The notes below the pieces were generated by a model. It saw only the letters and a program-made list of their open reading frames with translations, searched no databases and was not told the origin of the DNA. A stretch of 43,309 nt of DNA from a virus. Made by a program: the position numbers and the translations under genes. Position 1 is the first letter of the stretch; each line of letters opens with the position of its first letter. This document shows, piece after piece, positions 1,528 through 38,300 of the stretch. The DNA lies in IMG/VR virus record IMGVR_UViG_3300034104_004059, positions 1 to 43,309 of that record; one strand, 5' to 3'.

Positions 1528-2301
1528 ATGAAAAAATTATTTAGTATTTTAAGCTTAGTTTTAGTGTTAGTATCTTGTAATCGTCCAGAACCTAATTATG
1601 AAGGAGTCTTAATGACTGATTATGGTAGAAATGGTATTGAATCATTTAAAGTAGTTACAGGAGCACAAGGTCCATTAGGACCAGGATCAGAATTATATCA
1701 GGTTCCAATGTTTGAACAAAAAGCGGATGTTGATGCGGTTAGAGTATCAGCTAAAGATGCAGGTATATTCACTATTGACCCAAGTTATACTTATCAAGTA
1801 ACTAGAGGTAAAGGTCCAAATGTAGTATTAAATTATAAACATTTAGGAGCAGGATCTGAATTTTTAGATAATGTTGAAGACAATGTCCTAGATAAATTAG
1901 TTACTGATACATTTAGAGAATTATCTAGAAATTATACAACAGATAGTTTAATGAATAATTTAGGATCTTTTGAAAAAGAAGTAGAAACTGTATTACAAGA
2001 AAAATTTAATAATAAATTTTTTACATTAAATACACTTACTTCAGGATTAACTCCACCTAAATCAATGGCAACTGCAATTGAAGATCGAAATAATGCTATT
2101 CAAAAAGCTAATATGGTTAAAAATGAATTAGAAACTTCTAAAATGTATTTAGAAAAAGCTAAAATTGATGCTGAAACTAATAGAATGAAATCTAGTGGTT
2201 TAACTAAAGAAGTTTTACAACAACAATATATTGAAGCAATTCGTAATAGTAAAAATAGAATTATTATTACAGATGGTAAAACACCAATTATATTAAATTA
2301 A
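1528..2301 (+). CDS. SPFH/band 7 (prohibitin-like) lipoprotein
   Basis: The N-terminus is a lipoprotein signal: K2-K3, a hydrophobic stretch to residue 15, then a lipobox ending VSC with Cys17 as the lipidated residue, followed by N-R-P. The mature protein resembles SPFH/band-7 proteins: an N-terminal beta-rich segment with turns such as GPLGPGSELYQVP, then a DNVEDNVLDKLV helix entry and, after about residue 170, a long charged helix rich in Ala, Lys and Glu. Known SPFH proteins oligomerise on membranes. Such phage homologues may affect envelope proteases or superinfection; that is inference. Length (257 aa) is near that of HflC/prohibitin. The next stretch is a non-coding leader. Confidence 0.75.
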   Translation: MKKLFSILSLVLVLVSCNRPEPNYEGVLMTDYGRNGIESFKVVTGAQGPLGPGSELYQVPMFEQKADVDAVRVSAKDAGIFTIDPSYTYQVTRGKGPNVVLNYKHLGAGSEFLDNVEDNVLDKLVTDTFRELSRNYTTDSLMNNLGSFEKEVETVLQEKFNNKFFTLNTLTSGLTPPKSMATAIEDRNNAIQKANMVKNELETSKMYLEKAKIDAETNRMKSSGLTKEVLQQQYIEAIRNSKNRIIITDGKTPIILN

Positions 2302-13126: not shown

Positions 13127-13732
13127 ATGGGTAGAAGTAAAAGAAGTAAAAATAAATATTCAGCTAAGAAAAAAGAACAAAAACTTCAACATAAATTAAT
13201 GTTAAGTCTTAAAAAAAAAGTTAATAGAAAAATGGAAAAAAGATATTTAGTAGGAATCTACGATAGTTTTAGAAAAGGTGGAATTTATCATAATAAAATT
13301 AATACTGCAAATTCTAAATTAATAGGTTCTTATAGCACACAACCTATTTATAATATGTATGATGTAGGTGTAGATGATGTTATAATTGTTAAAGATGGTA
13401 ATCATTCTATTAAAATTGAAGTTTGGGAAATATCTGAAAAAGTATTAGCTATTCTTGAAAAAGAATATAATTATTATCCAGAATTAGAACAAGGTCAAAA
13501 TTTATATTTGAAAGAAACCGTTTCTTCACCATTTGGAGATATATTATTATATACTTACAATGATACATATGATGCAACAGATATGATTGTATTAGGTGAT
13601 TGGATAGAACATTTAAATATATTAAAAGCTAAAAGAATTATAACAACTCCTACAACTAACTATATGAGAAATGGTTATAATAAAATAATGAACAGTAGTG
13701 AATTTGCAATAGATAAAGAATTTATGGATTAA
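13127..13732 (+). CDS. Divergent gamma-glutamylcyclotransferase-like (AIG2/GGCT fold) protein
   Basis: This is the first gene of the amidoligase cluster. A basic N-terminal extension of about 35 residues, rich in Lys and Arg, precedes a second possible start at residue 36. The core then reads VGIYDSFRKGG (residues 42-52), equivalent to the Y-G-S-L-R-x-G motif of the fold but with Gly replaced by Asp. A segment ILEKEYNYY may carry the catalytic Glu. Members of this fold cleave gamma-glutamyl-amine bonds to give 5-oxoproline or act as binding proteins. The motif drift makes activity uncertain. The fold is reasonably clear; the substrate is unknown. Confidence 0.65.
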   Translation: MGRSKRSKNKYSAKKKEQKLQHKLMLSLKKKVNRKMEKRYLVGIYDSFRKGGIYHNKINTANSKLIGSYSTQPIYNMYDVGVDDVIIVKDGNHSIKIEVWEISEKVLAILEKEYNYYPELEQGQNLYLKETVSSPFGDILLYTYNDTYDATDMIVLGDWIEHLNILKAKRIITTPTTNYMRNGYNKIMNSSEFAIDKEFMD

Positions 13733-13744
13733 TAAAATAAAATT

Positions 13745-14230
13745 ATGAAAACATTAGAAGTTTTAGATAAATATAAAAAAATAATTTCAGGAATTCTTAA
13801 TTGTAAATCTGAAGAAATTAAATTTTATACAAATAATAACAATGAAGAAATTGGAACTATTGATTTTGATAAAAATGAAATTTCAAAAAATTGGGAGTTA
13901 GGTTGCTATAAAGTAATTCAACAAGTTGAAAATGAACAAATATTAATTTCAGATTGGAAATTATATCAATTACAACATTGTTGTGCTTTTATGGTATCTT
14001 GTAATGTTAGAGTTAAAGATGAATATAGAAATAAAAGAATTGGAACAATATTAAATCAATGTCGTCAAGATATTGGTAGATTATTAGGATATTCTGCAAT
14101 TTTATGTACAGATATTGAACAAAATCAAAATCAAAGAAAATTATTAAAAACAAATGGTTGGAAAGATATATTCTCAGTTGTAAATAAAAGAACTAATAAT
14201 AGAGTATATTTAACAGTTGTAAATATTTAA
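13745..14230 (+). CDS. GNAT-family N-acetyltransferase-like protein
   Basis: The 161-residue protein has the GNAT core: NVRVKDEYRNKRIGTILNQC, in which the R-x-x-R-I-G-T segment fits the acetyl-CoA pyrophosphate-binding loop, then a helix (RQDIGRLLGY) and a later strand with TNGWKDI. GNAT enzymes move acyl groups from acyl-CoA to amines; here a product or intermediate of the amidoligase pathway is a plausible substrate. It lies between two cyclotransferase-fold genes. The first 50 residues are poorly conserved by eye. Confidence 0.75.
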   Translation: MKTLEVLDKYKKIISGILNCKSEEIKFYTNNNNEEIGTIDFDKNEISKNWELGCYKVIQQVENEQILISDWKLYQLQHCCAFMVSCNVRVKDEYRNKRIGTILNQCRQDIGRLLGYSAILCTDIEQNQNQRKLLKTNGWKDIFSVVNKRTNNRVYLTVVNI

Positions 14231-14231
14231 A

Positions 14232-14645
14232 ATGAGTAAAAATAAAATATTAGTTGCATGCTATGGTAGCTTACGAAAAGGATTGGGAAATCATCATTAT
14301 TTAGAAAATGCTAAATATTTAGGAAATTTTAATACAGAACCAATTTATAACTTACATTCTTTAGGTAGTTATCCAGGTTTAAAAGAAAATGGAAATACTT
14401 CTGTAGTAATGGAAGTATATGAAGTTACTCCAATAGAAGCTCACAGTATAGATAGATTAGAAGGTTATACACCAGGTTCTAATAGTAATACTTTTTATGA
14501 TAAAAAAGATATAAATACACCTTGGGGAGTAGCTTCAGTTTACTTATATGTAAGTGAATTACCTAAATCAACTATTGTAAAAAGTGGTGATTGGAAAGAA
14601 TTTAAAAATAATACATCGAATTATTATTCAATAAGAAACAATTAA
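14232..14645 (+). CDS. Gamma-glutamylcyclotransferase-like (AIG2/GGCT) protein, canonical motifs
   Basis: The 137-residue protein shows the signature VACYGSLRKGLGNHHYL (Y11-G-S-L-R15) and a later DRLEGY with Glu77, the predicted catalytic acid. The length and order are typical of the family, which acts on gamma-glutamyl-amine compounds. It is a better match than the neighbour at 13127. In this cluster it may trim glutamyl-amide-type products. Two bases separate it from the GNAT stop. Confidence 0.85.
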   Translation: MSKNKILVACYGSLRKGLGNHHYLENAKYLGNFNTEPIYNLHSLGSYPGLKENGNTSVVMEVYEVTPIEAHSIDRLEGYTPGSNSNTFYDKKDINTPWGVASVYLYVSELPKSTIVKSGDWKEFKNNTSNYYSIRNN

Positions 14646-14659
14646 AAAATAAATAAAAA

Positions 14660-15355
14660 ATGGCAAAAAAGAAAATAGGAATTGTTGGACATTTCACAGG
14701 TCAAAATAGTTTTGGAATTAGTAAACCATATATGGATTTCTTTAGACACTTTGGAACAGTTTCATTAATTACACCTTGGGAAGAAGATGTTAGAGATTTA
14801 GATTTATTAGTATTACCTGGTGGTCCAGATGTTAATCCTTTAAGATATTTAGAACCAGATGATGAATTAAGTATTTATGTAGGAGCACCGTGCCCATTTA
14901 AAGAAAGATTTGATAGACATTTGTTGCCTCAATATATTGAAGCACAAACTCCAATATTTGGAATTTGCAGAGGACATCAATCATTAGCTGTTCATTTTGG
15001 TGCTAAATTAGTTCAAGATATGTATCATGAAACTAACCCAGATCATGATGGAGTTAAAACAATGCATACAGTTATTGCACCAGATTTTATTACAGAAATG
15101 ATTCCTACTATGCATGATTTCAATAAATTAGAATTTGATGTTAATAGTAGACATCATCAAGTAGTTATGAATTGTCCAGCAAATGCTACAATAATTGGAG
15201 AATATAATGGTAAATATAAAGAATTAAATGAACCTGGATGTATTGAAGCATTATCATATTTTCCAAATTATCCAGCTCATACAGTACAATGGCACCCTGA
15301 AGATAAAAGAGATTTATTTAGTGTCAGATTAATCCAACATTTATTAGATTTATAA
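14660..15355 (+). CDS. Class I glutamine amidotransferase-like / gamma-glutamyl hydrolase (peptidase C26-like)
   Basis: The 231-residue protein has a Rossmann-like start (KIGIVGHF), LLVLPGGPDVNP, then the nucleophile elbow FGICRGHQ with Cys103 and the catalytic WHPED with His212 and Glu214. That is the complete Cys-His-Glu triad of class I glutamine amidotransferases and gamma-glutamyl-GABA hydrolase. Without a fused synthetase domain, the PuuD-like hydrolase reading fits best. It would cleave gamma-glutamyl linkages or deliver ammonia to a partner ligase. The stop overlaps the ATP-grasp start. Confidence 0.85.
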   Translation: MAKKKIGIVGHFTGQNSFGISKPYMDFFRHFGTVSLITPWEEDVRDLDLLVLPGGPDVNPLRYLEPDDELSIYVGAPCPFKERFDRHLLPQYIEAQTPIFGICRGHQSLAVHFGAKLVQDMYHETNPDHDGVKTMHTVIAPDFITEMIPTMHDFNKLEFDVNSRHHQVVMNCPANATIIGEYNGKYKELNEPGCIEALSYFPNYPAHTVQWHPEDKRDLFSVRLIQHLLDL

Positions 15356-16287
15356 TGATAAAACAAGTTAAAAAAGTTAAAAATCCTACTTTATTTAGAC
15401 CAATGATTTATAGTAGACATCCAAGTCATAATGTATTAAGGTCTAATACTAAGAATATTAGATTATTACCATATCGTTCAGTTATAAGGTTTGGCTCAAC
15501 TACTGAATGTCCTGATACAGTTGCTAAAGGAGGTAATAGAATTGAAATTAATACGATAGAAGCTGTTAAAAATTCAGCTTCTAAATTATTAATGAAACAA
15601 AAGTTTACTGAAGCTCAAGTTAGTACTGCAGATTGGTTTTGTCCTATCAATAAAAATGCTGAAGATTATTTTGAAAGTTATAATAAAGATGAAAATAATA
15701 ATTTTTATCTAACTGTTAATGGTATAGGAAATATTGAAAGACTATATTATCCTATTGTTGCTAAAGCACATTTTGGTTCTAAAGGTAAAGGTAATACTTT
15801 AATTAAAACTAAAGAAGACTTAGATTCTTGGGTTGTTGGTAAAAATTTATCTCATTATATTTTTGAGAAATTTGTGAATTATGGTCATGAATTTAGATTA
15901 CATGTTACAGAAGATGGTTGTTTTTATGCTTGTAGAAAAGCTTTAAAATCAGGTGTTCCAGATTCTGAAAAATGGAGAAGACATGATGATATTTGTATTT
16001 GGTTTTTAGAAACTTCACCAGAATTTTATAAACCTAATAGTTGGAATAACATTGAAGAAGATTGTATTAAGGCTTTAAAAGCTATTGGTGCAGATATATT
16101 ATCTTTTGATGTTAAAGTTCAAACACCTACAGACGCTAAAGGTAATCTTAGAGGTTATCAAGAGTTTATTTTAATAGAATGTAACTCAGCATCATCAATG
16201 GATAATGGTACAGGAAATATTTCTGTATGTGCTCAAAAATATATTGAAGAATTACCTAAAATTATAACAAGAAAAGCTACAAAATAA
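15355..16287 (+). CDS. ATP-grasp carboxylate-amine ligase
   Basis: The 310-residue protein has the ATP-grasp core: PIVAKAHFGSKGKGN (K137 and the glycine-rich loop), EKFVN and EFRLHV strands, and the metal-binding FILIECNSASSM (E275, N277). ATP-grasp enzymes activate a carboxylate as acyl phosphate and join it to an amine or thiol. The N-terminal 60 residues are variable. It is translationally coupled on both sides (one-base overlaps at 15355 and 16287), which suggests joint work with the amidotransferase-like and neighbouring genes. Substrate unknown. Confidence 0.88.
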   Translation: MIKQVKKVKNPTLFRPMIYSRHPSHNVLRSNTKNIRLLPYRSVIRFGSTTECPDTVAKGGNRIEINTIEAVKNSASKLLMKQKFTEAQVSTADWFCPINKNAEDYFESYNKDENNNFYLTVNGIGNIERLYYPIVAKAHFGSKGKGNTLIKTKEDLDSWVVGKNLSHYIFEKFVNYGHEFRLHVTEDGCFYACRKALKSGVPDSEKWRRHDDICIWFLETSPEFYKPNSWNNIEEDCIKALKAIGADILSFDVKVQTPTDAKGNLRGYQEFILIECNSASSMDNGTGNISVCAQKYIEELPKIITRKATK

Positions 16288-16790
16288 TGGAAAGAATTAG
16301 TCCTATTACTGGGAATCCTGTTAGAAAATATACTAGAAAATCTGTTCCAGTTGAAATTGCAGAAGTTGTTGAAAAAAAAGTACAAGTAGAAAAAAAAGAA
16401 GAATATGATGGTATTCTTAAAAAAGAAGATTTTATATTTTATAAAGATGTTTCTAGTATAAGTGATTATGATTTTAAAATGGCTGTTATTAAAAGAAGTA
16501 CGTATTCATCTTCTACTTTATATTTTAGTTATGGACCTACTGTTAATTGTCAAATGATGACAGTTGGAGCTTTTGGACCTTTTTTACAAGTTGAGACTAA
16601 AATACTAGAACAACTTAAAGCTATAAAAGATAATTTTAAAAAAAATATACTTTTAGTAGATATAAGACACGAATATATGAAATATTTTAATGGAAAAATA
16701 CCAAAAGATATGATTATAATGATTTCTCCATATGTATCAACAAATGGTAGTAAAATGAATATATGTTTAATTAATATGACAAAATTATAA
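16287..16790 (+). CDS. Unknown protein inside the amidoligase cluster (167 aa)
   Basis: The N-terminal 50 residues are rich in Lys, Glu, Val and Pro (MERISPITGNPVRKY), likely flexible. The rest has strands around FIFYKDVSSI, STLYFSYG, TVGAFGPFLQVE and NILLVDIRHEYM, a beta-alpha plan somewhat like an acyltransferase half but with no recognised catalytic residue. It is coupled to the ATP-grasp gene by a one-base overlap. It could be a carrier, adaptor or unrecognised enzyme of the pathway. Confidence 0.6.
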   Translation: MERISPITGNPVRKYTRKSVPVEIAEVVEKKVQVEKKEEYDGILKKEDFIFYKDVSSISDYDFKMAVIKRSTYSSSTLYFSYGPTVNCQMMTVGAFGPFLQVETKILEQLKAIKDNFKKNILLVDIRHEYMKYFNGKIPKDMIIMISPYVSTNGSKMNICLINMTKL

Positions 16791-16792
16791 AA

Positions 16793-17971
16793 ATGAAAGA
16801 AGAATTAGAAGAATGGTTAAATAAAACAATTGAAATATATCCTGAAATTACTAGAGAAAAAATGGATAGTTTATTAAATAGAGATATGTCTAGTCGTTTA
16901 TATAGTGAAATTCCTTCAAATAGTATTATTAATGGACATCAACAAAAAATTGATTATATGATGAATACGTTAAAAGAATTAAAACAACCTAAAGAAAAAT
17001 CTAAATTAAATTTAGTAATTGCAGATGGTAGTAGTTCTATGGAATATGTAGAATATTTATCAACAGAATTTGATGTTAATGTTGTTAATATTAAAAATGT
17101 TAAACGTAAAAAAGATATTGATTTAGTATTATTTACAGGAGGAGAAGATGTTGATCCAGAATTATATGGAGAAAAAGTTGGTAAACATACATATATTAAT
17201 AAAACTCGTGATAAAAAAGAAAGAGAGTGTTTTAATTTCTTTAAAGGTTACGTACCAATGCTTGGTATATGTAGAGGAAATCAACTATTATGTGTTCTTA
17301 ATGGTGGTAAATTAATTCAACATGTTGAAGGTCATGGTAGAGAACATACTATGATAATTGATGGAAATTCTAGACCTGTACCAATTACTTCAACACATCA
17401 TCAAATGGTATATCCTTTTAATTTAAAAAATGATAAATATAAATTAGTTGCTTATTCTGAATTTTATAAAAGTAAAACATATTTAAATGGTGATAATAAA
17501 GAAATTGAATTAAGTAAAGATTTTTTAGAACCTGAAATTGTATATTATCCAAATACTAAGTGTTTAGGTATTCAAGGGCATCCTGAATATGGAAGCTGTG
17601 ATGATAGTACTAAAAAACTTTGTATGAGGTTAATTAAAAAGTATTTATTTAGTGATAATGAATCTAAAAAATCTGAATCATATAAATGGGAAGATAATTA
17701 TGATTATATAGAAACTGAAGAACCAGCTATTGGTAGTTATGTACATAAAACCATACCTTCAAATTATAAAAATTTTTACCATGATAGCTTTAAAAGTGGG
17801 ATAGATGCTATTCCAAGTTTAGATTCAGATAGTAATCTTGATAAAAAACTTAATGCTTTTTCTAAAGAATATATTGATAAAGTGTTTATTGATCCTAGTG
17901 TATATTATAGTAACACACCTTCAGAATTTCAAACTAAAACTATTCCTGTAAATAAAGAATTTAAAGATTAA
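16793..17971 (+). CDS. Second class I glutamine amidotransferase-like / C26 hydrolase, with C-terminal extension
   Basis: The 392-residue protein has an N-terminal helical segment of about 75 residues, then the amidotransferase fold: LVLFTGGEDVDPELYG, LGICRGNQLL with Cys160, THHQMVYP and IQGHPEYG with His263 and Glu265. The triad is complete. After about residue 290 there is a charged, Ser/Lys/Tyr-rich tail of about 100 residues absent from the paralog at 14660. The tail may bind partners. It is likely a hydrolase or amidotransferase acting on glutamyl-amide bonds, like its paralog. Confidence 0.82.
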   Translation: MKEELEEWLNKTIEIYPEITREKMDSLLNRDMSSRLYSEIPSNSIINGHQQKIDYMMNTLKELKQPKEKSKLNLVIADGSSSMEYVEYLSTEFDVNVVNIKNVKRKKDIDLVLFTGGEDVDPELYGEKVGKHTYINKTRDKKERECFNFFKGYVPMLGICRGNQLLCVLNGGKLIQHVEGHGREHTMIIDGNSRPVPITSTHHQMVYPFNLKNDKYKLVAYSEFYKSKTYLNGDNKEIELSKDFLEPEIVYYPNTKCLGIQGHPEYGSCDDSTKKLCMRLIKKYLFSDNESKKSESYKWEDNYDYIETEEPAIGSYVHKTIPSNYKNFYHDSFKSGIDAIPSLDSDSNLDKKLNAFSKEYIDKVFIDPSVYYSNTPSEFQTKTIPVNKEFKD

Positions 17972-17985
17972 TAAAAAGTATAAAA

Positions 17986-18798
17986 ATGACAAAAATAAAA
18001 AATATTACAATTGGTACAGATCCAGAAATGTTTCTTAAAAAAGATGGTGTTATAATTTCAGCAATTGGTAAAATAGGAGGGTCTAAACATGATCCTCTTC
18101 CAATCTCTGATAATGGACATTTTATTCAAGAAGATAATGTTGCAATTGAATACAATATTCCAGCTTGTACAACTAAAGAAGAATTTATTTACCATAATAA
18201 TTTTGTAAAAGATTATTTAGATACAGTTGTTACAGCTATAGGTTGTGAATTAGATTTCTCAGCATCTGCAATTTTATCTGATGAAGAATTAGATTCTGAT
18301 CAAGCTAGATTAGCTGGTTGTGAACCTGATTTTGATGTATGGAGACAAGATGTTAATATAGCTCCAGATTTAAGTGCTAGTAATATGAGAGTGTGTGGTG
18401 GTCATATTAGTATTGGTTGGGATAATCCAACAGAATCTTCACAAGAAGATATGGTTAAAGCTATGGATGCAACCTTAGGTTTAAAATCATTATTTTTAGA
18501 TTCTGATACAGAACGTAAAAAATTATATGGTAAAGCAGGTTGTTTTAGATTTCGTGATTATGGAATTGAATACAGAACTTTATCTAATTTTTGGATTAAA
18601 ACTAATGAATCTTTAGCTTGGGCTTTTGATACAACAATGGAAGCTATTGAATTAGTTAATTCTGGTAAAATAGATTTGATTAAAGAAAAATACGCAGACA
18701 AAATTGTTGAAGCAATTAATACAAATAATAAATCATTAGCTCAGGAATTATTAAATGAATTTTCACTTATTAATTCAGAAAAACTAGAATTAGTATAA
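17986..18798 (+). CDS. COOH-NH2 ligase, phage phiEco32-type (amidoligase-like)
   Basis: The 270-residue protein shows the family's signature: ITIGTDPEMFLKKDG (Glu14), DNVAIEYN (Glu55), CGGHISIGWD (His140) and DYGIEYRTLSNFW (Glu195, Arg197). These acidic and histidine residues form the ATP/Mg site of glutamine-synthetase-fold carboxylate-amine ligases. The family was first noted in phages such as phiEco32. It would make an amide bond between a carboxylate and an amine. It is followed by the class II amidotransferase and a second amidoligase. Substrate unknown. Confidence 0.88.
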   Translation: MTKIKNITIGTDPEMFLKKDGVIISAIGKIGGSKHDPLPISDNGHFIQEDNVAIEYNIPACTTKEEFIYHNNFVKDYLDTVVTAIGCELDFSASAILSDEELDSDQARLAGCEPDFDVWRQDVNIAPDLSASNMRVCGGHISIGWDNPTESSQEDMVKAMDATLGLKSLFLDSDTERKKLYGKAGCFRFRDYGIEYRTLSNFWIKTNESLAWAFDTTMEAIELVNSGKIDLIKEKYADKIVEAINTNNKSLAQELLNEFSLINSEKLELV

Positions 18799-18819
18799 AA
18801 TAATTAAAAAAAAATAAAA

Positions 18820-20805
18820 ATGGCAATAAAAATAATTCTAATATTAGCATTATTACAATATATATATTACTTTATATTTAAACCTAAATTAAATATTTTA
18901 TCTTGTGGAATTTTTGGTCAAGCTACAAATACACCAGTGAAATTAGATGTATCTTCTGTTAATATTCTTGGAATATATAATATAGAAAGAGGTAAACAAT
19001 CTTGTGGTTTAACTTGGGATGGAGATATTCAACATGGCATTGATAAAGATAAACTTTATAGTGACTTTATTAAAAATAGAAATATTAAACCAAAATATTT
19101 TCCAACTATGTTTGGACACACTAGACAATCTAGTTATGGAAATATTGTTAATTTAGATAACGCACATCCTTTTGGATATGGTATCAGTGCTGATAAAAAT
19201 AGTTATGAGTTTATATTTGTTCATAACGGAACATTAAAAAATTCTAAAGAATTAGCAGCTAAATATAATATTGATACAATTGTAAAGTATCAAAAAAAAA
19301 TGCATAATAGTGAAAATACATATGAAACAACTAGAACTAAAATTGACTCAGAAATTCTAGGTGAAATATTATGGCAAGAAAAATCTTATCATGTATTGAG
19401 TGAATATGTAGGTACAGCTGCTTGTGCTTGGATGTGGTGTAATGAACCTAATAAATTATATTTATGGTCAGGTGCTTCTAAATTACATATAGATGATACA
19501 GATGGTAAAATATTTGAAGAAAGACCTTTGTGTGTTTATAATAAAAGTAAAAATAATATGTTTTTTTCATCATTAGAAGATAGTTTAACTACTATTGGTG
19601 GTGTTTTAAACAATAATATTGAACAAATTGCTGTAAATACAGTACATATAATTACTAACGGTGACTATAAAAATTGTGAAAAAATTCTTTCTACTAGAAA
19701 AAATGCTTGTCAAGATGATAGTTATAAAGCACCCAGGCACAATCATTACGGAGGAAATCATAGAACTCAAAACTATTATGATACCATACTTAATGATGGT
19801 ATTGATTATAGTAATCCTAGTTCTGCTTATTGTAATGTAAAAAATGTAACAGGTATGGATATAACAGAAGATATTCCATTACATAATATAAACAATTATT
19901 TAGGTAAAGTTTATTCAAAAGGTCTTAGATATTGGAAAAACGGACATGTAATTAATGGTATATATATGTATATTCTTGGTTATGGTTTTAAAAGACTTGG
20001 TGATAGTTATGTTGAAGCTTATGCTGAAATTGAAAAAAATCGTGGTAAAGTATTTTCAACAGGAGGAGATTTTTCTTATACTATAACAGAAGGTCAAATT
20101 CCAATTCAAAAAGAATCTAAAATACAATTACATTATTTTATTGATGGTGCAATGTTAAAAACTCATTCTGATTATATTAAATGTCAAGAAATGAAAAAAA
20201 ATATGACATCTGGAACTAAATATATAGGAGTTGTAGAATTATCAAGTATGTCTAAACATCCAGTAGCAACCATGTTAACATCTAAAAAACCTCCAGTTTA
20301 TCTTGACGGTGGTTATTATACAGGAAATTGTGTAGAATTAGGTTTTGAAAAAGTTTATTATTTTGATAATGGTAAATTTATGAAATGTAGTAGAAGATTA
20401 GATTTAACTGAAGAAAAACCAGTTATTCAATTACCTATAAATTTTAAAAAAGAAGAACCTCAAATTGTACATAATCCACAAATTTTAAATCAGGCTGTTA
20501 ATAATATTAGAAATTATGAAAAAGAATGGGAAGATGATCTTAAAAAAGAAACTTTAAATAAAATCATTGAAACTCATTTTGAAACAGAAATTGATGAAGA
20601 ACTAAATGAAGAAGATGTTGATGAATTTATTACGGATTTTGTTAGTGAAAGTTTTATATCATTAATAGAAGATATTGAATCTAAAATGAAAGATTTAAAA
20701 GATTACAAAGAAAATTCAATTGCAAAAGATGCGATTAGAACTTTTGATATGATTTTAAATGTTTGTAATCAATATATTACAGAACCAAGAAAAGAAAAAG
20801 AATAA
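18820..20805 (+). CDS. Class II glutamine amidotransferase-like (Ntn hydrolase) with hydrophobic N-terminal leader
   Basis: Residues 29-260 resemble class II (Ntn-type) amidotransferases: C29-G-I-F-G-Q, then GHTRQSSYGN, ANPFG-like DNAHPFGYG, FIFVHNGTL and a later SSLEDSLTTIGG. In this family the Cys must be the N-terminal residue after processing. Here it is preceded by 28 residues, of which about 4-20 form a strongly hydrophobic segment, so leader cleavage or a membrane anchor is needed. The C-terminal 400 residues are unknown, with two Cys/Gly-rich parts and an acidic helical tail. It probably supplies ammonia to the nearby ligases. Coupled to the next gene by a one-base overlap. Confidence 0.8.
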   Translation: MAIKIILILALLQYIYYFIFKPKLNILSCGIFGQATNTPVKLDVSSVNILGIYNIERGKQSCGLTWDGDIQHGIDKDKLYSDFIKNRNIKPKYFPTMFGHTRQSSYGNIVNLDNAHPFGYGISADKNSYEFIFVHNGTLKNSKELAAKYNIDTIVKYQKKMHNSENTYETTRTKIDSEILGEILWQEKSYHVLSEYVGTAACAWMWCNEPNKLYLWSGASKLHIDDTDGKIFEERPLCVYNKSKNNMFFSSLEDSLTTIGGVLNNNIEQIAVNTVHIITNGDYKNCEKILSTRKNACQDDSYKAPRHNHYGGNHRTQNYYDTILNDGIDYSNPSSAYCNVKNVTGMDITEDIPLHNINNYLGKVYSKGLRYWKNGHVINGIYMYILGYGFKRLGDSYVEAYAEIEKNRGKVFSTGGDFSYTITEGQIPIQKESKIQLHYFIDGAMLKTHSDYIKCQEMKKNMTSGTKYIGVVELSSMSKHPVATMLTSKKPPVYLDGGYYTGNCVELGFEKVYYFDNGKFMKCSRRLDLTEEKPVIQLPINFKKEEPQIVHNPQILNQAVNNIRNYEKEWEDDLKKETLNKIIETHFETEIDEELNEEDVDEFITDFVSESFISLIEDIESKMKDLKDYKENSIAKDAIRTFDMILNVCNQYITEPRKEKE

Positions 20806-22535
20806 TGAGTAAAGAAAAAGTAGTTATAACAGTTAAAGATGAAAGTTTACCTATATCTAAATGTAGACAATTTGATAAAAAATGGTATAAAATAGGTGAT
20901 GTTAAAATAGAAAATTCTGGTGATTGTTATTTTATTAAAAATAGATATTATCGAGAAGAAACTGGTAGTGTTGTATTTAATTACAGTATCAATGAATATG
21001 TTTTAAAAGATGATAGTGTAATTAAAGGAATTATTAATATTGATGAAAACAACATTGTTAAATTTGGTTATTTTAACTATGATAAAAAACATGCTGTTAT
21101 TAAATTAGAAAATGGTAGTAAATGTAATATATTAAATGAAGAATGTCTTTTAAATAATAAATTATATCGTGAAATTTTATCTACTGGTGAATATTCACAT
21201 ATTAGTTTAATTCCAGCTAAGAAATTTAATAGTATGTTAATTCCAAAACAAGAATATAAACATAGTTTACCTTATGACTCAAAGGGAATTACAAATCAAT
21301 TTTTAAGTTTATATAATAATAATTACAATCCCAAAATATTTGAAAATGTTTCTTTATATTCTAAAGTATTAGGAAATTTAACATTTGGATTAGAGTTTGA
21401 AACGACTAAAGGTTTTATTCCTGAGAGAATTATTAATAATTATGGTTTGATTCCTTTAAGGGATGGTAGTATTAGTGGTATTGAATATGTTACAGTTCCT
21501 TTACAAAGTGAAAAAGGGTTACAATATGTAATTGATATTTCTAAAATATTAGAACATAGGACTGTTTATGATAAAACTTGTTCTTTACATCAACATATTG
21601 GAAATATACCTAGAACTAAAGAATTTATTTTATCTTTCTTTAAAGTAACATGTGCTATTCAAAATGAAATTTTTGAAATGTTTCCATTATTTAAAAAATA
21701 TAATTTTAGAGTTAAAAATAAAAATTATAGTAAACCTTATCCTATTTATAATTTGTTAAGTCAAATGGATAGTGTAATTAATACTAATAATATTGATGAA
21801 AACTTTAATATATTATATAAATATTTATCTAGTGGACAAGAATTTAAAGATGTTGGAAGTGATTTAGATAATGTAACCATTCATCCAAGTGATCCAAATG
21901 GTAATCAAAAATGGTTGATAAAAAATAGATATTATATTCATAATATGATCCCTCTTATTTTTGGTAATAAACAAACTATTGAATTTAGAATTCATACTCC
22001 TACATATGATGTAAATAAAATAGTTCCTTTTATGTTTATAAATAGTATTTTAATTAATTATACTATTCAAAATCAAAATGAAATATTAGGAACTCGTGGT
22101 TTTTTATGTAATAAAAATTTATCAAATATTATTACAGAGTATCTAAATAATTTTAAATTTAATGATGGTGGTAATTTACATGCTTCTTTATTACATTATA
22201 TTGATAGTAGAAAAAAAGATACTGAATCACAAAATATTAATGGTGATATTGTTGGTGATGAAACTAAAATTAGATCTTGTAATTTTGTAAATTGGACTAA
22301 AGAAGTTAATGAAAAACAAGAATATTTATATATGGATAAAAAATCTATTTATAAACATATTGATGGTTTTGTGTCAGATCCGTATGAAGTAGAAATAGAA
22401 CGAATATTAGACCATATGGTTAAAGGAAGAATGTCTGTTTCTACAGGTAATTCTAAAATAAGTTTTTACAGAAAAGAACAGAAAGATTATAGAAATAAAA
22501 ATAATTTATCTCCAATTTTAACATATGAAGAATAA
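20805..22535 (+). CDS. Amidoligase (PF12224-type) with N-terminal extension
   Basis: The C-terminal catalytic part has FGLEFETT (Glu197, Glu199), RDGSISGIEYVT, SLHQHIGN (His262, His264) and TIEFRIHTPT (Glu393, Arg395). These match the glutamine-synthetase-fold amidoligases. The first 190 residues include a small beta-rich region and are not recognised. The total of 576 residues is longer than a simple amidoligase. With the neighbouring ligase at 17986 it makes two distinct ATP-dependent amide-forming enzymes in one operon. It is coupled to the UDG-like gene by a one-base overlap. Confidence 0.88.
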   Translation: MSKEKVVITVKDESLPISKCRQFDKKWYKIGDVKIENSGDCYFIKNRYYREETGSVVFNYSINEYVLKDDSVIKGIINIDENNIVKFGYFNYDKKHAVIKLENGSKCNILNEECLLNNKLYREILSTGEYSHISLIPAKKFNSMLIPKQEYKHSLPYDSKGITNQFLSLYNNNYNPKIFENVSLYSKVLGNLTFGLEFETTKGFIPERIINNYGLIPLRDGSISGIEYVTVPLQSEKGLQYVIDISKILEHRTVYDKTCSLHQHIGNIPRTKEFILSFFKVTCAIQNEIFEMFPLFKKYNFRVKNKNYSKPYPIYNLLSQMDSVINTNNIDENFNILYKYLSSGQEFKDVGSDLDNVTIHPSDPNGNQKWLIKNRYYIHNMIPLIFGNKQTIEFRIHTPTYDVNKIVPFMFINSILINYTIQNQNEILGTRGFLCNKNLSNIITEYLNNFKFNDGGNLHASLLHYIDSRKKDTESQNINGDIVGDETKIRSCNFVNWTKEVNEKQEYLYMDKKSIYKHIDGFVSDPYEVEIERILDHMVKGRMSVSTGNSKISFYRKEQKDYRNKNNLSPILTYEE

Positions 22536-31992: not shown

Positions 31993-32658
31993 ATGATGGG
32001 AATTTACAAGATTACAAATCCTAATGGAAAAATATACATTGGTCAAACAACAAACTGGTTAAAAAGATATAATAATTATAAAAAATATAATTGTAAATAT
32101 CAAACAAAATTATATAATTCTTTAAAATTTTATAAATTTGAAAATCATATATTTGAAGTTATTGAAGAATGTGAAGAGTCAGAATTAAATATTAAAGAAA
32201 GATATTATCAAGATCTATATAATTCATCTAATAAACAACATTTAAATTGTAGATTAACTTCTACAGATGATAAATCAGGTAAATTAAGTGAAGAAACTAA
32301 ATTAAAATTGTCTAAATCAAGAAAAGGTAAATATTGTGGTGTAGATAATCATATGTTTGGTAAATTTGGTGAAAAGCATCAATGGTTTGGTAAAAAACAC
32401 ACAGAAAATGCAAAATTAAATATTTCTGAAAAACAAAAAGGAAATTTAAATCATATGTATGATAAAAAATATGATTTAAATCCTAATTCAAAAAAAGTTA
32501 TTAATGTTGAAACTGATGAAATTATAAATTCAATTAAAGAATTATCGGAAATTTTACAAATTAAATATTCTTATTTAAGAAGTATGATTTCTGGTAATTG
32601 TAAAAATAAAACAAAATATATATATTATGAAGAAGATAAATATAAAGATGAAATATAA
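31993..32658 (+). CDS. GIY-YIG homing endonuclease with NUMOD3-like repeats
   Basis: Residues 3-30 give GIYKITNPNGKIYIGQTTNWLKR, the GIY-YIG catalytic start. Residues about 96-160 carry repeated NUMOD3-like units (SEETKLKLSKSRKGK, HMFGKFGEKHQWFGKKH), and the C-terminus has a helix-turn-helix-like NUMOD part (SIKELSEILQIKYSYLRSM). Free-standing homing endonucleases cut intron- or gene-lacking alleles. It lies between two nucleotide or DNA-repair genes and has its own upstream palindrome, unlike the tightly overlapping neighbours, fitting a recent insertion. Confidence 0.88.
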   Translation: MMGIYKITNPNGKIYIGQTTNWLKRYNNYKKYNCKYQTKLYNSLKFYKFENHIFEVIEECEESELNIKERYYQDLYNSSNKQHLNCRLTSTDDKSGKLSEETKLKLSKSRKGKYCGVDNHMFGKFGEKHQWFGKKHTENAKLNISEKQKGNLNHMYDKKYDLNPNSKKVINVETDEIINSIKELSEILQIKYSYLRSMISGNCKNKTKYIYYEEDKYKDEI

Positions 32659-33472: not shown

Positions 33473-33680
33473 ATATATTTATGATTATAAAGAAGTAAAA
33501 TCTGGTAGAACTGCTAAATGGTGTAGTTGTTGCAGTAAAACAATTAAACCTGGTGAATCAAGCATAACTATAACTTATTATAATTCTGAATTTTTTACTA
33601 ATTCAGTATGCTCTAAAAAGTGTAAAGACAAGTATTACGAAAATTTTAATAGTGACGAAGAGGAGGAAGAAGATGAGTAA
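33465..33680 (+). CDS. Small Zn-binding protein with acidic tail (71 aa)
   Basis: CSCC at residues 20-23 and CSKKC near residues 49-53 give a possible Zn-binding site in a short beta-rich protein. The C-terminal tail is strongly acidic (Asp/Glu run). It overlaps the start of thymidylate synthase (ATGAGTAA). The function is unknown. Confidence 0.7.
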   Translation: MSKYIYDYKEVKSGRTAKWCSCCSKTIKPGESSITITYYNSEFFTNSVCSKKCKDKYYENFNSDEEEEEDE

Positions 33681-34782
33681 AATAGATAAAACATATCATC
33701 AGTTGTTACAAAAAATAATGACTGATGGTTATACATATGAAGATCCTAATAGAAAAGGAGTTAATAGACTTGAAATACCAAGTTATACATTTAGACATGA
33801 ATTTAAAGATGGATTTCCTGCAATAACCACAAAAAAACTTCATTACAAAAATGTTGTAACAGAGTTAATATGGTTTTTACGTGGTGATACAAATATTAAA
33901 TATCTTGTAGATAATGGTTGTAATATTTGGAATAAAGATGCTTATAATTATTTTAAAAAACATGTACCTTCAAAATTTGTATCATTTGAAAAATACATTA
34001 AATTAATTAAAGAAGATAAATTACAATCACTTCTTAGGTTTAAATTAGGTAATTTAGGTCCTGTTTATGGAAAACAATGGCGTGATTTTAATGGTGTAGA
34101 TCAAATTAAAGATTTAATTCAGGGATTAAAAGATAAACCTTTAAGTACTGAACATATTGTTACAGCTTGGAACCCTGGAGAAAAGTTTAAAATGGCTTTA
34201 CCAGCATGTCATTATGGGTTTCAAATAGTTGTAAGACCTTTAAAATATGATTTTGAAGAAATGTCAGAAGAATGTGAAAAACATTTTAACAAAGAATATC
34301 ATAAATATTCAGATGGAAATTCTAGTTCTGAAGATTTTTGGAATCAAGGATGGTATAAATATGCACATAAAACTTATCCACAATATGGATTTGAACTTCA
34401 TTGGACACAGCGCAGCTCAGATTCATTTTTAGGAATTCCTTACAATATAGCTTCATACGCTACATTAGCGTTGATTTTAGAGAAGATAACTGGTTATAAA
34501 GCATTAGCTATAGAATCACCTTTAAAAAAAGTTCATTTGTACGATAATAGTTTAAATGCTGTTAAAGAACAATTAAGTAGAAATGTTGATAAATATGATA
34601 AATGTGAATTAAATTTAGAATATTTAAAAGAACATATGTTTGATATTTATCCTGCGTGGGAAACTAAAGGAGGTTTAAATATTGATAAATTTATAAATTT
34701 GTTAAAATTTGAAGATTTTAAATTAGAAGGATATAAATCATATCCAGCTATTAATGTAAAAATGTTAGAAAGAGATGAATAA
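33673..34782 (+). CDS. thyA: Thymidylate synthase (ThyA-type)
   Basis: The start at 33673 is an ATG overlapping the preceding stop; a GTG at 33652 in the same frame would read out of the upstream gene. The 369-residue protein has DPNRKGVNRL, GPVYGKQWRDF, TAWNPG, PACHYGFQ with Cys179, QRSSDSFLGIPYN with Asn258, and an HLYDNSLNAV region. Asn258 marks it as a dUMP-using thymidylate synthase rather than a dCMP hydroxymethylase. It is longer than ThyA of E. coli due to inserts around residues 90-125 and 190-225. It makes dTMP using methylene-tetrahydrofolate. Confidence 0.93.
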   Translation: MSKIDKTYHQLLQKIMTDGYTYEDPNRKGVNRLEIPSYTFRHEFKDGFPAITTKKLHYKNVVTELIWFLRGDTNIKYLVDNGCNIWNKDAYNYFKKHVPSKFVSFEKYIKLIKEDKLQSLLRFKLGNLGPVYGKQWRDFNGVDQIKDLIQGLKDKPLSTEHIVTAWNPGEKFKMALPACHYGFQIVVRPLKYDFEEMSEECEKHFNKEYHKYSDGNSSSEDFWNQGWYKYAHKTYPQYGFELHWTQRSSDSFLGIPYNIASYATLALILEKITGYKALAIESPLKKVHLYDNSLNAVKEQLSRNVDKYDKCELNLEYLKEHMFDIYPAWETKGGLNIDKFINLLKFEDFKLEGYKSYPAINVKMLERDE

Positions 34783-35354: not shown

Positions 35355-38300
35355 TTATCGACCCCACCTTGAGTTAAGCCCATTATACATTTCTTCAGAA
35401 GTTACTTCTAATTTACTAATAACAGGAATTAATTTTTCAAATTTTCTTTTTATTTTTAATTCGTCTTTATTTTTACCAGATTCATATCTATCATTAATTT
35501 CAGCCCAATTCCAAGGTAAAATATATTCAGCTACATCTAATGTTTGTTCAATAATTCTAAGTGACGGAATAGGACTTTTCGTAATTTTAGTAGCTTCACG
35601 AGGATCTCTAAATTGACTTAATTCTGATTCTAAACGTCTTGCTAAAAACGCAACTGTCCATAACCATTCATCATCTCCATCTCCTGCACCACCAGCCGCT
35701 AACATTCCAATTAATGGTAATATTGCTCCAGTTAAAGCTAATTCCATTACAGAACGTTTTATACCAGCTTTTTTATCATTTGATAATTTATTCCAATTAG
35801 AACTTAATATATCAAATTTAAGTTGTCTTAATGCTGGATAAACTCCGTGTATTAAAAATCTAGCTGTACTTACATAAGAACCTTCTTCAGTAGTTCTTAA
35901 TGCATTATTAAAATGAATATCATTTTCAGTTAAATTATCTTGATGTTTATAAAAAGATTGAGCACCTCTAAATCTAGCTACAGCTTGAGGTATTAAATAA
36001 CGTCTAAATAACATTATCATTTTACCCCACCAATGTCTATAAGCCTCAGGTTGTAAATTAGAATCATAATTACCCATTGTATCAAATATTTTCTTTTTTA
36101 CAAATAATAATAATTGTTCTTTACCACCTTCATTAATTTTAGAATTTAAACTTCTAGTTGTATAAACAACTTTATCATTCATTCTAACAATACCTTTATC
36201 ATCTTTAGCTAACATATCTAAAACTGATATTGCTTTATCTTCTTTTACAATATTACCATCTTTATCAATATAGTTATTATTAGCATCCATAACTTTAATA
36301 GATTCTAATGTAGCCAATACCATAACAGATTGAACATAATGTTCACCTCCAGAATGTAATATTTGTAAAGATTCAAAATTAATTGCTGTTTTAGCAATAG
36401 TGTTTTTAATAAATTCTTGTTGTTGAACTGTAAATCCACCAAATGTATCAAACATTTGATTAACTTGATTTACAAATGATTGTTTAACTGGTCTAGAATA
36501 ATCTCCAATAATATTTGCAAAATCTTTAGTATAAATTTCATGAGCTTTTTTAACAGAACCTTTAGCTAAATGATTACCTGCAACCCTTTCTAAAAATATT
36601 TGAGCTTGAGCATTAAGAATATTTGCTGCTGCAGAAAATGTGTTTAAAGATAAACCTACAGAAGAAACCCATCCATTAGCTGTGCTAATAACTTTATTAA
36701 TATCTAATGGACCTAATTTACCATATGTAATATTAAATAAATCATAAATATTTTTTTCAATTAAATTATTAATCATTTGATACTCATTAGAATCAATACC
36801 TCTTTTAGTAGATTCTTGTTCTCTTTTAGCAAATTTATTTAAAATAGATATTCCTCCTACAGTTTTATTATAATATTCTTTATTTTTAGCAACCATTTTA
36901 ATAGCTTCAACTTGTAATGAAATAGCTTGCTTTTCTTTATAATTTATACCATTAATTCTATTTAAACGATTAATTGTAAATAAGTCTAATGATTGTTGAT
37001 CTGGACTAATATCACCTCTGTAATGAACTCTTAACATATTTACAGAATTACCTTTACTATCTAAACGTTGTTTAACATATCCAATATCATCAGGTCTAAT
37101 TTCAGTTAAATCTTTAATTTTATCTTTAACAATACCTTTTAAATTACCTTCAATAGTTCTTTCTACATCAGATTTAGTTACAGAAGGTAAATTATAATAA
37201 TTAATACCAATAAAAGGTTGTATTAATGATTGAATACTATTAGTTTGAGAATCTGTAGTTTTAGTATCATTAATAAAATGATTAAGAACTTCTTTTTCAA
37301 TTTTACTTAATTTAGATAAATCATTTTTCCATTTACTTGTAGGTACTAAAACACCGTCTTTAAGAGTAGTATTTTCTTTTTTCCATTTAGCAAATTTATC
37401 TTTAGCTTTAATATATTCAGCATCTTTAAAATTATTTTCAGAAGCTGTGTATTTAGCATTTTTGTCTGCCTTTAATTTTTGAAATTCTTCTTTAAATTTA
37501 ATAGAATATTCTCCTTTATAATAAGCTTTTCCAGTACTATCAAATTCTAATAAATTAGCATATAATTTAGTAGGTACACTAGTTCCTTTTTCTTTAACTA
37601 AACTTTCAAATAATTTAGCATCTTTAAAATCACCCTCTCTAGTTTGCTCAATAGTTTTTTCTCTAGCTTGAGTTAATAAATTCATTGTTATACTAACTAA
37701 TCTAGAATTATTATTAATAGCATCCATAAATTTAACAGAAGCTGAAGATATGTCTGTACCAATTCCATTTAATAAAAATTCAATTTCTTTATCTAAATCA
37801 ATTTGAATTTCATCTTTAAATGTAGTATTCATTTGTTGAGCAACCCATTCAGTTTGACTAATATTATTTAAACCTCTTTGTTTAAATTCCTTACTTAATC
37901 TTTCTTTCCAATTATTTTCAACTTGAGGTAAATAATTAATATTATTTAATTGAGTTTTAAGAATATCTTTTAATTTACTATTGAGTCTTTTTTCTAATAA
38001 ATCATGTTTACCTGTTGCATCAGAAATACTTTTTTCTATTTCATCAACAAGTTCTTGACCAACTTCATCAATTTTATCTTGATTTAAAGATGTAATTAAA
38101 GTTGAAACATCTTCAATTAAATCATAAGAAGACATATAACTTTTATATAATTCAATTATTTCTAAACCGTTAGCTTGAGTTAAATCTTCACCTTTAAGTC
38201 TAGTTTCTAATTGTTCAATAGTTGACAACATTGATTTAGTATAAACAGCTACACCTTTCCATTGATTAATACTATCAACTTTTTCAATTTCAGCAATTAA

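What the first reader, a model, noticed from the sequence alone, without database searches (positions are those of the whole stretch)
13127..22535. Ten-gene phage amidoligase/ATP-grasp/amidotransferase cluster: possible peptide-like product or tagging system
The sequence shows two different glutamine-synthetase-fold ligases (17986, 20805), an ATP-grasp ligase (15355), a class II (18820) and two class I (14660, 16793) amidotransferase/hydrolase-fold proteins, two AIG2/GGCT-fold proteins (13127, 14232), a GNAT (13745) and one unknown (16287). All are on one strand with 1-base overlaps or gaps of up to 21 bases. The families and their clustering in phages are established from comparative genomics of amidoligases; product and target are not known to me. 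The set has ATP-driven bond formers, ammonia donors, trimming hydrolases and a capping enzyme, so a pathway that builds and edits amide-linked conjugates is inferred. It might alter host wall, host protein, DNA bases or a small molecule.
Basis: partly seen in the sequence, partly recalled or inferred. Interest (0 to 1): 0.88.

Follow-up and report, generated by a model that had tools for sequence, protein, structure and literature searches.

The report
Known phage amidoligase cassette, crAss-like version
This is a crAss-like phage's copy of a gene cassette that many unrelated phages carry and that has been proposed, but never shown, to change the host cell wall by making and breaking amide bonds; the cassette is already known, but this lineage adds a membrane leader on one enzyme and an inactivated duplicate of another.

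Summary
Ten same-strand genes (gaps -1 to +21 bases) encode two glutamine-synthetase-fold ligases, a RimK-like ATP-grasp ligase, a class II amidotransferase, two Peptidase_C26 and two GGCT-fold proteins; the GNAT call is weak and one gene is unknown. The window is a crAss-like fragment nearest phi14:2. The set is not new: it is a published phage cassette (LUZ24, phiEco32, PA11, RIO-1, phiM6) called a 'peptidoglycan modification' module, whose product has not been shown. The four core enzymes travel together in 55 of 56 loci with enough flank, in several gene orders, and catalytic residues are almost invariant. Likely chemistry: ligases build gamma-glutamyl or peptide amides; C26 and GGCT enzymes trim them. 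The target is inferred to be an envelope peptide precursor; DNA is disfavoured because DNA of cassette-bearing phages is cut by many restriction enzymes. Two features seem undescribed: a transmembrane leader ending at the catalytic cysteine of the class II enzyme (28 of 94 sequences, 22 contigs), and a duplicated GGCT whose first copy lost its catalytic glutamate in all 16 pairs (10 contigs). New member of a known kind; moderate interest.

The parts
13127..13732 (+). GGCT/AIG2-fold protein, predicted pseudoenzyme (catalytic Glu replaced by Tyr)
   Evidence: Pfam GGACT E 1e-4; catalytic column Y/H/N in all 16 first paralogues, E in all second and single copies
13745..14230 (+). possible GNAT acetyltransferase, accessory
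   Evidence: Pfam E 0.03, PHROG E 0.014; relative L006 E 0.005; homologues in 19 other loci, not all beside the cassette
14232..14645 (+). gamma-glutamyl(amine) cyclotransferase, catalytic Glu present
   Evidence: Pfam GGACT 2.5e-17, PHROG 2520 1.2e-24; LEGY motif kept
14660..15355 (+). Peptidase_C26 / class I GATase-fold, Cys-His-Glu present
   Evidence: Pfam 2.5e-24; C, H, E, D, P, Y at the checked positions
15355..16287 (+). RimK-like ATP-grasp ligase
   Evidence: PHROG 2599 1.8e-20; family profile hits RimK / S6-glutamate ligase structures E 1.6e-11 to 2e-11 and cyanophycin synthase 1e-7; K77, E179, R181, K195, D252 and E275 invariant in 95 sequences
16287..16790 (+). unknown accessory protein
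   Evidence: no Pfam family; weak homologues at about the same place in L010/L029, L028 and L047
16793..17971 (+). Peptidase_C26 with about 100-residue extensions at both ends
   Evidence: PHROG 7218 2.5e-42; C160, H263, E265
17986..18798 (+). COOH.NH2 ligase, glutamine-synthetase fold
   Evidence: PHROG 3815 1.8e-74; AlphaFold pLDDT 95.6, Foldseek to glutamine synthetases E 4.4e-5, prob 1.00; catalytic-type residues invariant in 98 sequences
18820..20805 (+). class II (Ntn) glutamine amidotransferase with N-terminal transmembrane leader and about 400-residue uncharacterised C-terminal part
   Evidence: Pfam GATase_6 1.5e-7; profile hits PurF 1.8e-20 and GlmS; Cys29 follows a 28-residue hydrophobic leader with no in-frame ATG/GTG/TTG between the first ATG and the Cys
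20805..22535 (+). Amidoligase_2, glutamine-synthetase superfold, with N-terminal beta-rich region (residues about 1-135)
   Evidence: PHROG 2443 2.5e-28; invariant G195, E197, E199, D220, S222, E227, H262, H264 in 59 sequences; AlphaFold pLDDT 88.4; Foldseek weak to glutamine synthetase, GshAB, YbdK and PafA, E 2e-3 to 4e-2

Best explanation
The ten genes are a crAss-like phage's version of a widespread phage cassette that makes and trims amide (mainly gamma-glutamyl-type) linkages. Shown here: membership of the cassette, intact catalytic residues, and conserved co-occurrence of the core four enzymes plus a C26 and/or GGCT enzyme. Inferred from the families: the two glutamine-synthetase-fold ligases and the RimK-like ATP-grasp enzyme use ATP to join an amino acid or amine to a carboxylate; the class II enzyme hydrolyses glutamine, or a gamma-glutamyl amide as EgtC does; the C26 and GGCT enzymes remove gamma-glutamyl groups, setting the length or releasing a protecting group, as in the Puu, ergothioneine and butirosin pathways. 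Inferred, less certain: the acceptor is an envelope peptide, most likely a lipid-linked peptidoglycan precursor handled at the inner face of the membrane, so that the infected cell's wall is changed early, against superinfection or to prepare lysis. The membrane leader on the class II enzyme and the early expression of the cassette in phage PSA-HP1 fit this. Cassette identity is about 0.95 certain; the envelope target about 0.45, which is the confidence given.
For: Same gene set in phi14:2, cr108_1, Lbo-JY46, PaP3, phiEco32, TC6, CVT22, BUCT695, Privateer and phiM6. Core four in 55 of 56 loci, in at least seven gene orders, which argues for functional coupling rather than mere shared descent. 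Catalytic residues almost invariant. Gamma-glutamyl theme: the C26 profile hits PuuD and related enzymes; the class II profile also touches EgtC, weakly. The ligase clade is almost confined to viruses: 518 relatives in IMG/VR against 12 in about 85,000 bacterial and archaeal genomes, mostly on short MAG contigs carrying other cassette genes; the two scans used slightly different patterns. Published proposal of peptidoglycan modification; cassette expressed immediately after infection in PSA-HP1. Transmembrane leader before the nucleophile in 28 of 94 class II sequences. Every named host in the rows seen is Gram-negative or cyanobacterial.
Against: No product or substrate has been shown for any member in the literature found. 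Peptidoglycan modification is itself a prediction made from families. Most members lack the membrane leader. A RimK-like ligase could equally modify proteins. Membrane placement does not name the substrate. The host list is also explained by sampling.
Confidence: 0.45

Rival explanations
1. Small-molecule pathway: the cassette makes and later deprotects a gamma-glutamylated amine or short peptide (glutathione-like, polyamine or another metabolite) used during infection, for example to detoxify, to act on a defence, or to condense DNA.
For: GCL-like ligase + ATP-grasp + GGCT + C26 + Ntn hydrolase is the logic of glutathione, Puu, ergothioneine and butirosin chemistry; the C26 profile hits PuuD and the class II profile weakly EgtC. 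In Lbo-JY46 the cassette sits next to PncB and PrsA.
Against: The ATP-grasp enzyme is closest to RimK and cyanophycin synthase, not to glutathione synthetase; the membrane leader is unexplained; no transporter or amine-producing gene was recognised in the neighbourhoods read.
Confidence: 0.25
2. Protein tagging: the RimK-like ligase and the amidoligases add glutamyl or other amino-acid tags to a host or phage protein, with the hydrolases as tag editors.
For: ATP-grasp profile best hits are S6 / alpha-L-glutamate ligases; Amidoligase_2 is distantly of the PafA/Dop superfold.
Against: Fold match to PafA is weak (E 0.044); no Pup-like or other tag precursor was recognised in the cassette, though small ORFs were not searched systematically; GGCT and C26 enzymes normally act on small gamma-glutamyl compounds.
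Confidence: 0.18
3. DNA hypermodification: the cassette decorates phage DNA bases with amino-acid groups.
For: It lies in the replication region, next to primase and a uracil-DNA glycosylase homologue.
Against: DNA of cassette-bearing phage tf is cut by RsaI, HpaI, EcoRV, SmaI and HaeIII and serves in primer extension; DNA of LUZ24-like phage U17 with the module was sensitive to 11 of 16 enzymes. No base-kinase or base-exchange partner was recognised in the cassettes read.
Confidence: 0.05
4. No single pathway: the genes are a loose island of unrelated metabolic genes.
For: Accessory members (GNAT-like, 16287, second C26 and GGCT) vary between relatives.
Against: Core four together in 55 of 56 loci despite changed gene order.
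Confidence: 0.03

Closest known systems
'Peptidoglycan modification' cassette of podoviruses (RIO-1, PSA-HP1, PA11, LUZ24, PaP3, tf, phiEco32, 7-11, CW02, phiM6)
   Same: Same core: COOH.NH2 ligase, Amidoligase_2, RimK-like ATP-grasp, class II GATase, plus GGCT and/or C26; one strand; near primase
   Different: Window has two C26 and two GGCT proteins, a membrane leader on the class II enzyme, an N-terminal extension on Amidoligase_2, a different gene order, and lacks the roughly 200-residue family that follows the COOH.NH2 ligase in many podoviral cassettes
Cellulophaga phage phi14:2 (Crassvirales, Steigviridae) genes g037-g041
   Same: Same neighbourhood from primase to uracil-DNA glycosylase; ATP-grasp 44%, COOH.NH2 ligase 34%, amidoligase 35% identity; also has the membrane leader
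   Different: phi14:2 has one GGCT, and no C26, GNAT-like or 16287 gene in the cassette
PuuD-type gamma-glutamyl hydrolases (Peptidase_C26)
   Same: Catalytic Cys-His-Glu and the GGxDxxPxxY motif
   Different: Partner ligases are not recognisably PuuA-type; substrate unknown
Ergothioneine EgtA/EgtC pair
   Same: Glutamine-synthetase-superfold ligase plus class II Ntn enzyme that can cleave a gamma-glutamyl amide
   Different: EgtC similarity is weak (E 0.1); PurF and GlmS are closer

Membership tests
Phage amidoligase / putative peptidoglycan-modification cassette | phiEco32-like COOH.NH2 ligase | tested here: met
   PHROG 3815 E 1.8e-74, Pfam COOH-NH2_lig over cut-off; glutamine-synthetase fold
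Phage amidoligase / putative peptidoglycan-modification cassette | Amidoligase_2 ligase | tested here: met
   PHROG 2443 E 2.5e-28; invariant catalytic-type residues; Pfam alone is under its cut-off
Phage amidoligase / putative peptidoglycan-modification cassette | RimK-like ATP-grasp ligase | tested here: met
Phage amidoligase / putative peptidoglycan-modification cassette | class II glutamine amidotransferase | tested here: met
Phage amidoligase / putative peptidoglycan-modification cassette | GGCT and/or C26 trimming enzyme | tested here: met
   two of each
Phage amidoligase / putative peptidoglycan-modification cassette | contiguous, one strand, beside primase in the replication/early region | tested here: met
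   compare
Phage amidoligase / putative peptidoglycan-modification cassette | changes host peptidoglycan | not testable with these tools
   not shown for any member in the papers found
Crassvirales | crAss-type marker genes and gene order | tested here: met
   primase best hit phi14:2 41.7% over 92%, then crAss-like phages; 2237-residue protein hits the phi14:2 'RNA polymerase accociated protein' and crAss-like phages. Capsid, portal and terminase were not identified in this fragment
DNA hypermodification system | virion DNA altered, resistant to many restriction enzymes | not testable with these tools
   for relatives only, from papers: tf and U17 DNA is cut by most enzymes named, which speaks against it
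Pup-type tagging (PafA/Dop/Pup) | ligase of PafA type plus a Pup-like tag protein | tested here: inconclusive
   PafA fold match only E 0.044; small ORFs not searched for a tag

The most novel reading that the evidence does not exclude
In Crassvirales the cassette is a membrane-tethered factory: the class II amidotransferase is made with a transmembrane leader that must be cut exactly at the catalytic cysteine, coupling enzyme activation to arrival at the membrane, and a dead GGCT homologue acts as a substrate-binding or regulatory subunit; together they install a new amide-linked group on lipid-linked wall precursors.
Probability: 0.15. Interest if true: 0.75.

Novelty: new member of a known kind. 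Interest (0 to 1): 0.4.

Why it matters
The cassette is carried by phages of Pseudomonas, Escherichia, Vibrio, Bacteroidota and cyanobacteria, yet no product was found in the literature although it was predicted in 2009. The crAss-like version gives concrete handles: a membrane leader that ends at a nucleophile, a conserved pseudoenzyme pair, and an enzyme set with near-invariant active sites. An infection with and without the cassette, read by muropeptide, metabolite and protein mass spectrometry, would settle the target and may reveal a new wall or peptide chemistry.

Tried and rejected
DNA base modification: disfavoured by restriction data on relatives. Chance clustering: rejected by co-occurrence. 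Lipoprotein signal on the class II enzyme: judged by eye unlikely, because charged residues lie between the hydrophobic stretch and the Cys and the -3 to -1 residues do not fit a lipobox. An alternative start directly before the Cys: no ATG, GTG or TTG between the first ATG and the Cys in the window, and none at Cys-1 in relatives with a leader; in phi14:2 a GTG lies a few codons before the Cys, so a short form is possible there. Cellular operon context: the genome scan gave only 12 loci, mostly with the phage cassette; L105 lies near a lytic transglycosylase gene, but most of its neighbours have no family. Function of the roughly 200-residue podoviral family: no PDB hit. PF14395 search of the own record: nothing rang, including in controls, so uninformative. 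No near DNA match in phages. Repeats: nothing notable. Iyer 2009 and De Smet 2016 are not held, so their content is known here only through papers that cite them.

Full report
What is there. The ten ORFs stand as described, all on the + strand with gaps of -1 to 21 bases. Profile searches support both glutamine-synthetase-fold ligases, the ATP-grasp ligase, the class II amidotransferase, two Peptidase_C26 proteins and two GGCT-fold proteins; the GNAT call is weak, and 16287 has no family. The gene run goes on beyond the finding: primase ends 12 bases upstream, and a homologue of the phi14:2 uracil-DNA glycosylase overlaps by one base downstream.

Where it is. The window is a 43,309-base virus record without tRNA genes. 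Its primase and its 2237-residue protein are closest to Cellulophaga phage phi14:2 and then to other crAss-like phages, and the primase-cassette-UDG order matches phi14:2. It is a crAss-like fragment; no near DNA relative is in the phage collection.

The cassette is known. The same enzyme set lies in phages PaP3, phiEco32, TC6, CVT22, BUCT695, Privateer and phiM6, in the crAss-like phages phi14:2 and cr108_1, and in Leptolyngbya phage Lbo-JY46. Papers describe it as a seven-gene peptidoglycan modification cassette or module, suggested to block superinfection or prepare lysis (PMC10580990, PMC5498523, PMC6256558, PMC11945000). In Pseudoalteromonas phage PSA-HP1 these genes are expressed immediately after infection (PMC7082346), and three of the enzymes were found by mass spectrometry of amplified, concentrated phage SU10, a phiEco32 relative (PMC4281155). 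No paper found shows a product.

Co-occurrence. A scan of viral contigs with a ligase alignment gave 518 relatives, of which 80 loci were kept. Among 56 loci with at least 7 kb on both sides (the window, named phages and viral contigs pooled), the core four were together in 55, and with a C26 or GGCT enzyme in 51; several gene orders occur. Some loci are duplicate fetches of one contig, so the effective number is smaller. In about 85,000 bacterial and archaeal genomes the ligase clade was found 12 times, mostly with other cassette genes on short MAG contigs; it is essentially a viral family.

Active sites. The COOH.NH2 ligase positions D12, E14, D50, E55, H140, R177, R188, E195 and R197 are invariant or nearly so in 98 sequences; the class II Cys, R102, N136, G137 and D176 are kept in nearly all of 111; ATP-grasp K77, E179, R181, K195, D252 and E275 are invariant in 95; the C26 Cys-His-Glu are each kept in 88 or more of 91. 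Amidoligase_2 keeps E197, E199, D220, H262 and H264. That these match the ExE, HxH and ExR positions of glutamine synthetase is my reading of the motifs, not a computed superposition. Models: COOH.NH2 ligase pLDDT 95.6, glutamine-synthetase fold with no closer solved relative; Amidoligase_2 pLDDT 88.4, weak matches to glutamine synthetase, GshAB, YbdK and PafA.

Chemistry. The C26 profile hits PuuD and other probable glutamine amidotransferases in the PDB; the class II profile hits PurF and GlmS best and EgtC weakly; the ATP-grasp profile hits RimK-type glutamate ligases best. From established knowledge of these families, gamma-glutamyl amide formation and removal is the shared theme. This is inference; no substrate was tested.

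Two lineage features. First, in 28 class II sequences (22 contigs), including the window, a 26-48-residue leader with a transmembrane-like stretch ends directly before the catalytic Cys, without a start codon at Cys-1; 62 others begin at the Cys after one start residue. The script's count of 29 includes one false case, L048. Positive residues lie mostly on the Cys side, which by the positive-inside rule puts the enzyme in the cytoplasm. Leader removal, autocatalytic or not, is inferred from class II chemistry. Second, in all 16 loci (10 contigs) with paired GGCT genes the first copy has Tyr, His or Asn at the catalytic Glu position, while the second copy and all 44 single copies keep Glu.

Target. 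Wall precursors fit the membrane leader, early expression and the published proposal, but nothing here excludes a small molecule or a protein. DNA is disfavoured: phage tf DNA is cut by five enzymes named in its paper (PMC3517423) and U17 DNA by 11 of 16 (PMC11945000).

Verdict. A real, conserved and already described cassette, in a lineage where it has been little noted: no paper tying it to crAss-like phages was recognised in one search. New member of a known kind; its function is an open and testable question.

Noticed in passing
window 33652-34779: Thymidylate synthase of 376 residues whose Pfam match comes in two stretches, suggesting an insertion within the protein.
   Followed up: no
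window 31993-32658: Homing endonuclease (PHROG 314; GIY-YIG PHROG 5123) inside the replication region.
   Followed up: no
window 1528-2301: SPFH/Band 7 protein, Pfam E 3e-14; a Band-7-like protein also lies near the cassette in Proteus phage Privateer.
   Followed up: no
window 35355-42068, - strand: 2237-residue protein related to the phi14:2 'RNA polymerase accociated protein' and putative RNA polymerase subunits of crAss-like phages.
   Followed up: partly
L006 6195 and 7653; L053 8609 and 10067; L009 6726 and 7147: The COOH.NH2 ligase gene appears as two ORFs, perhaps split by an intron or an insertion.
   Followed up: no
podoviral cassettes, e.g. L059:10787-11503, L015:7857-8402: A divergent family of about 200 residues follows the COOH.NH2 ligase in 30 loci; no Pfam family for the members scanned and no PDB relative for the profile.
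   Followed up: partly
L002:8549-12758 (Leptolyngbya phage Lbo-JY46): The cassette lies next to PncB and PrsA genes (NAD and PRPP metabolism), with two weak homologues of window 16287 between them.
   Followed up: no
L048, L049, L052, L054, L058, L060, L062, L071, L073, L082: These cassettes carry a second class II amidotransferase-like gene, mostly beginning Met-Cys.
   Followed up: no
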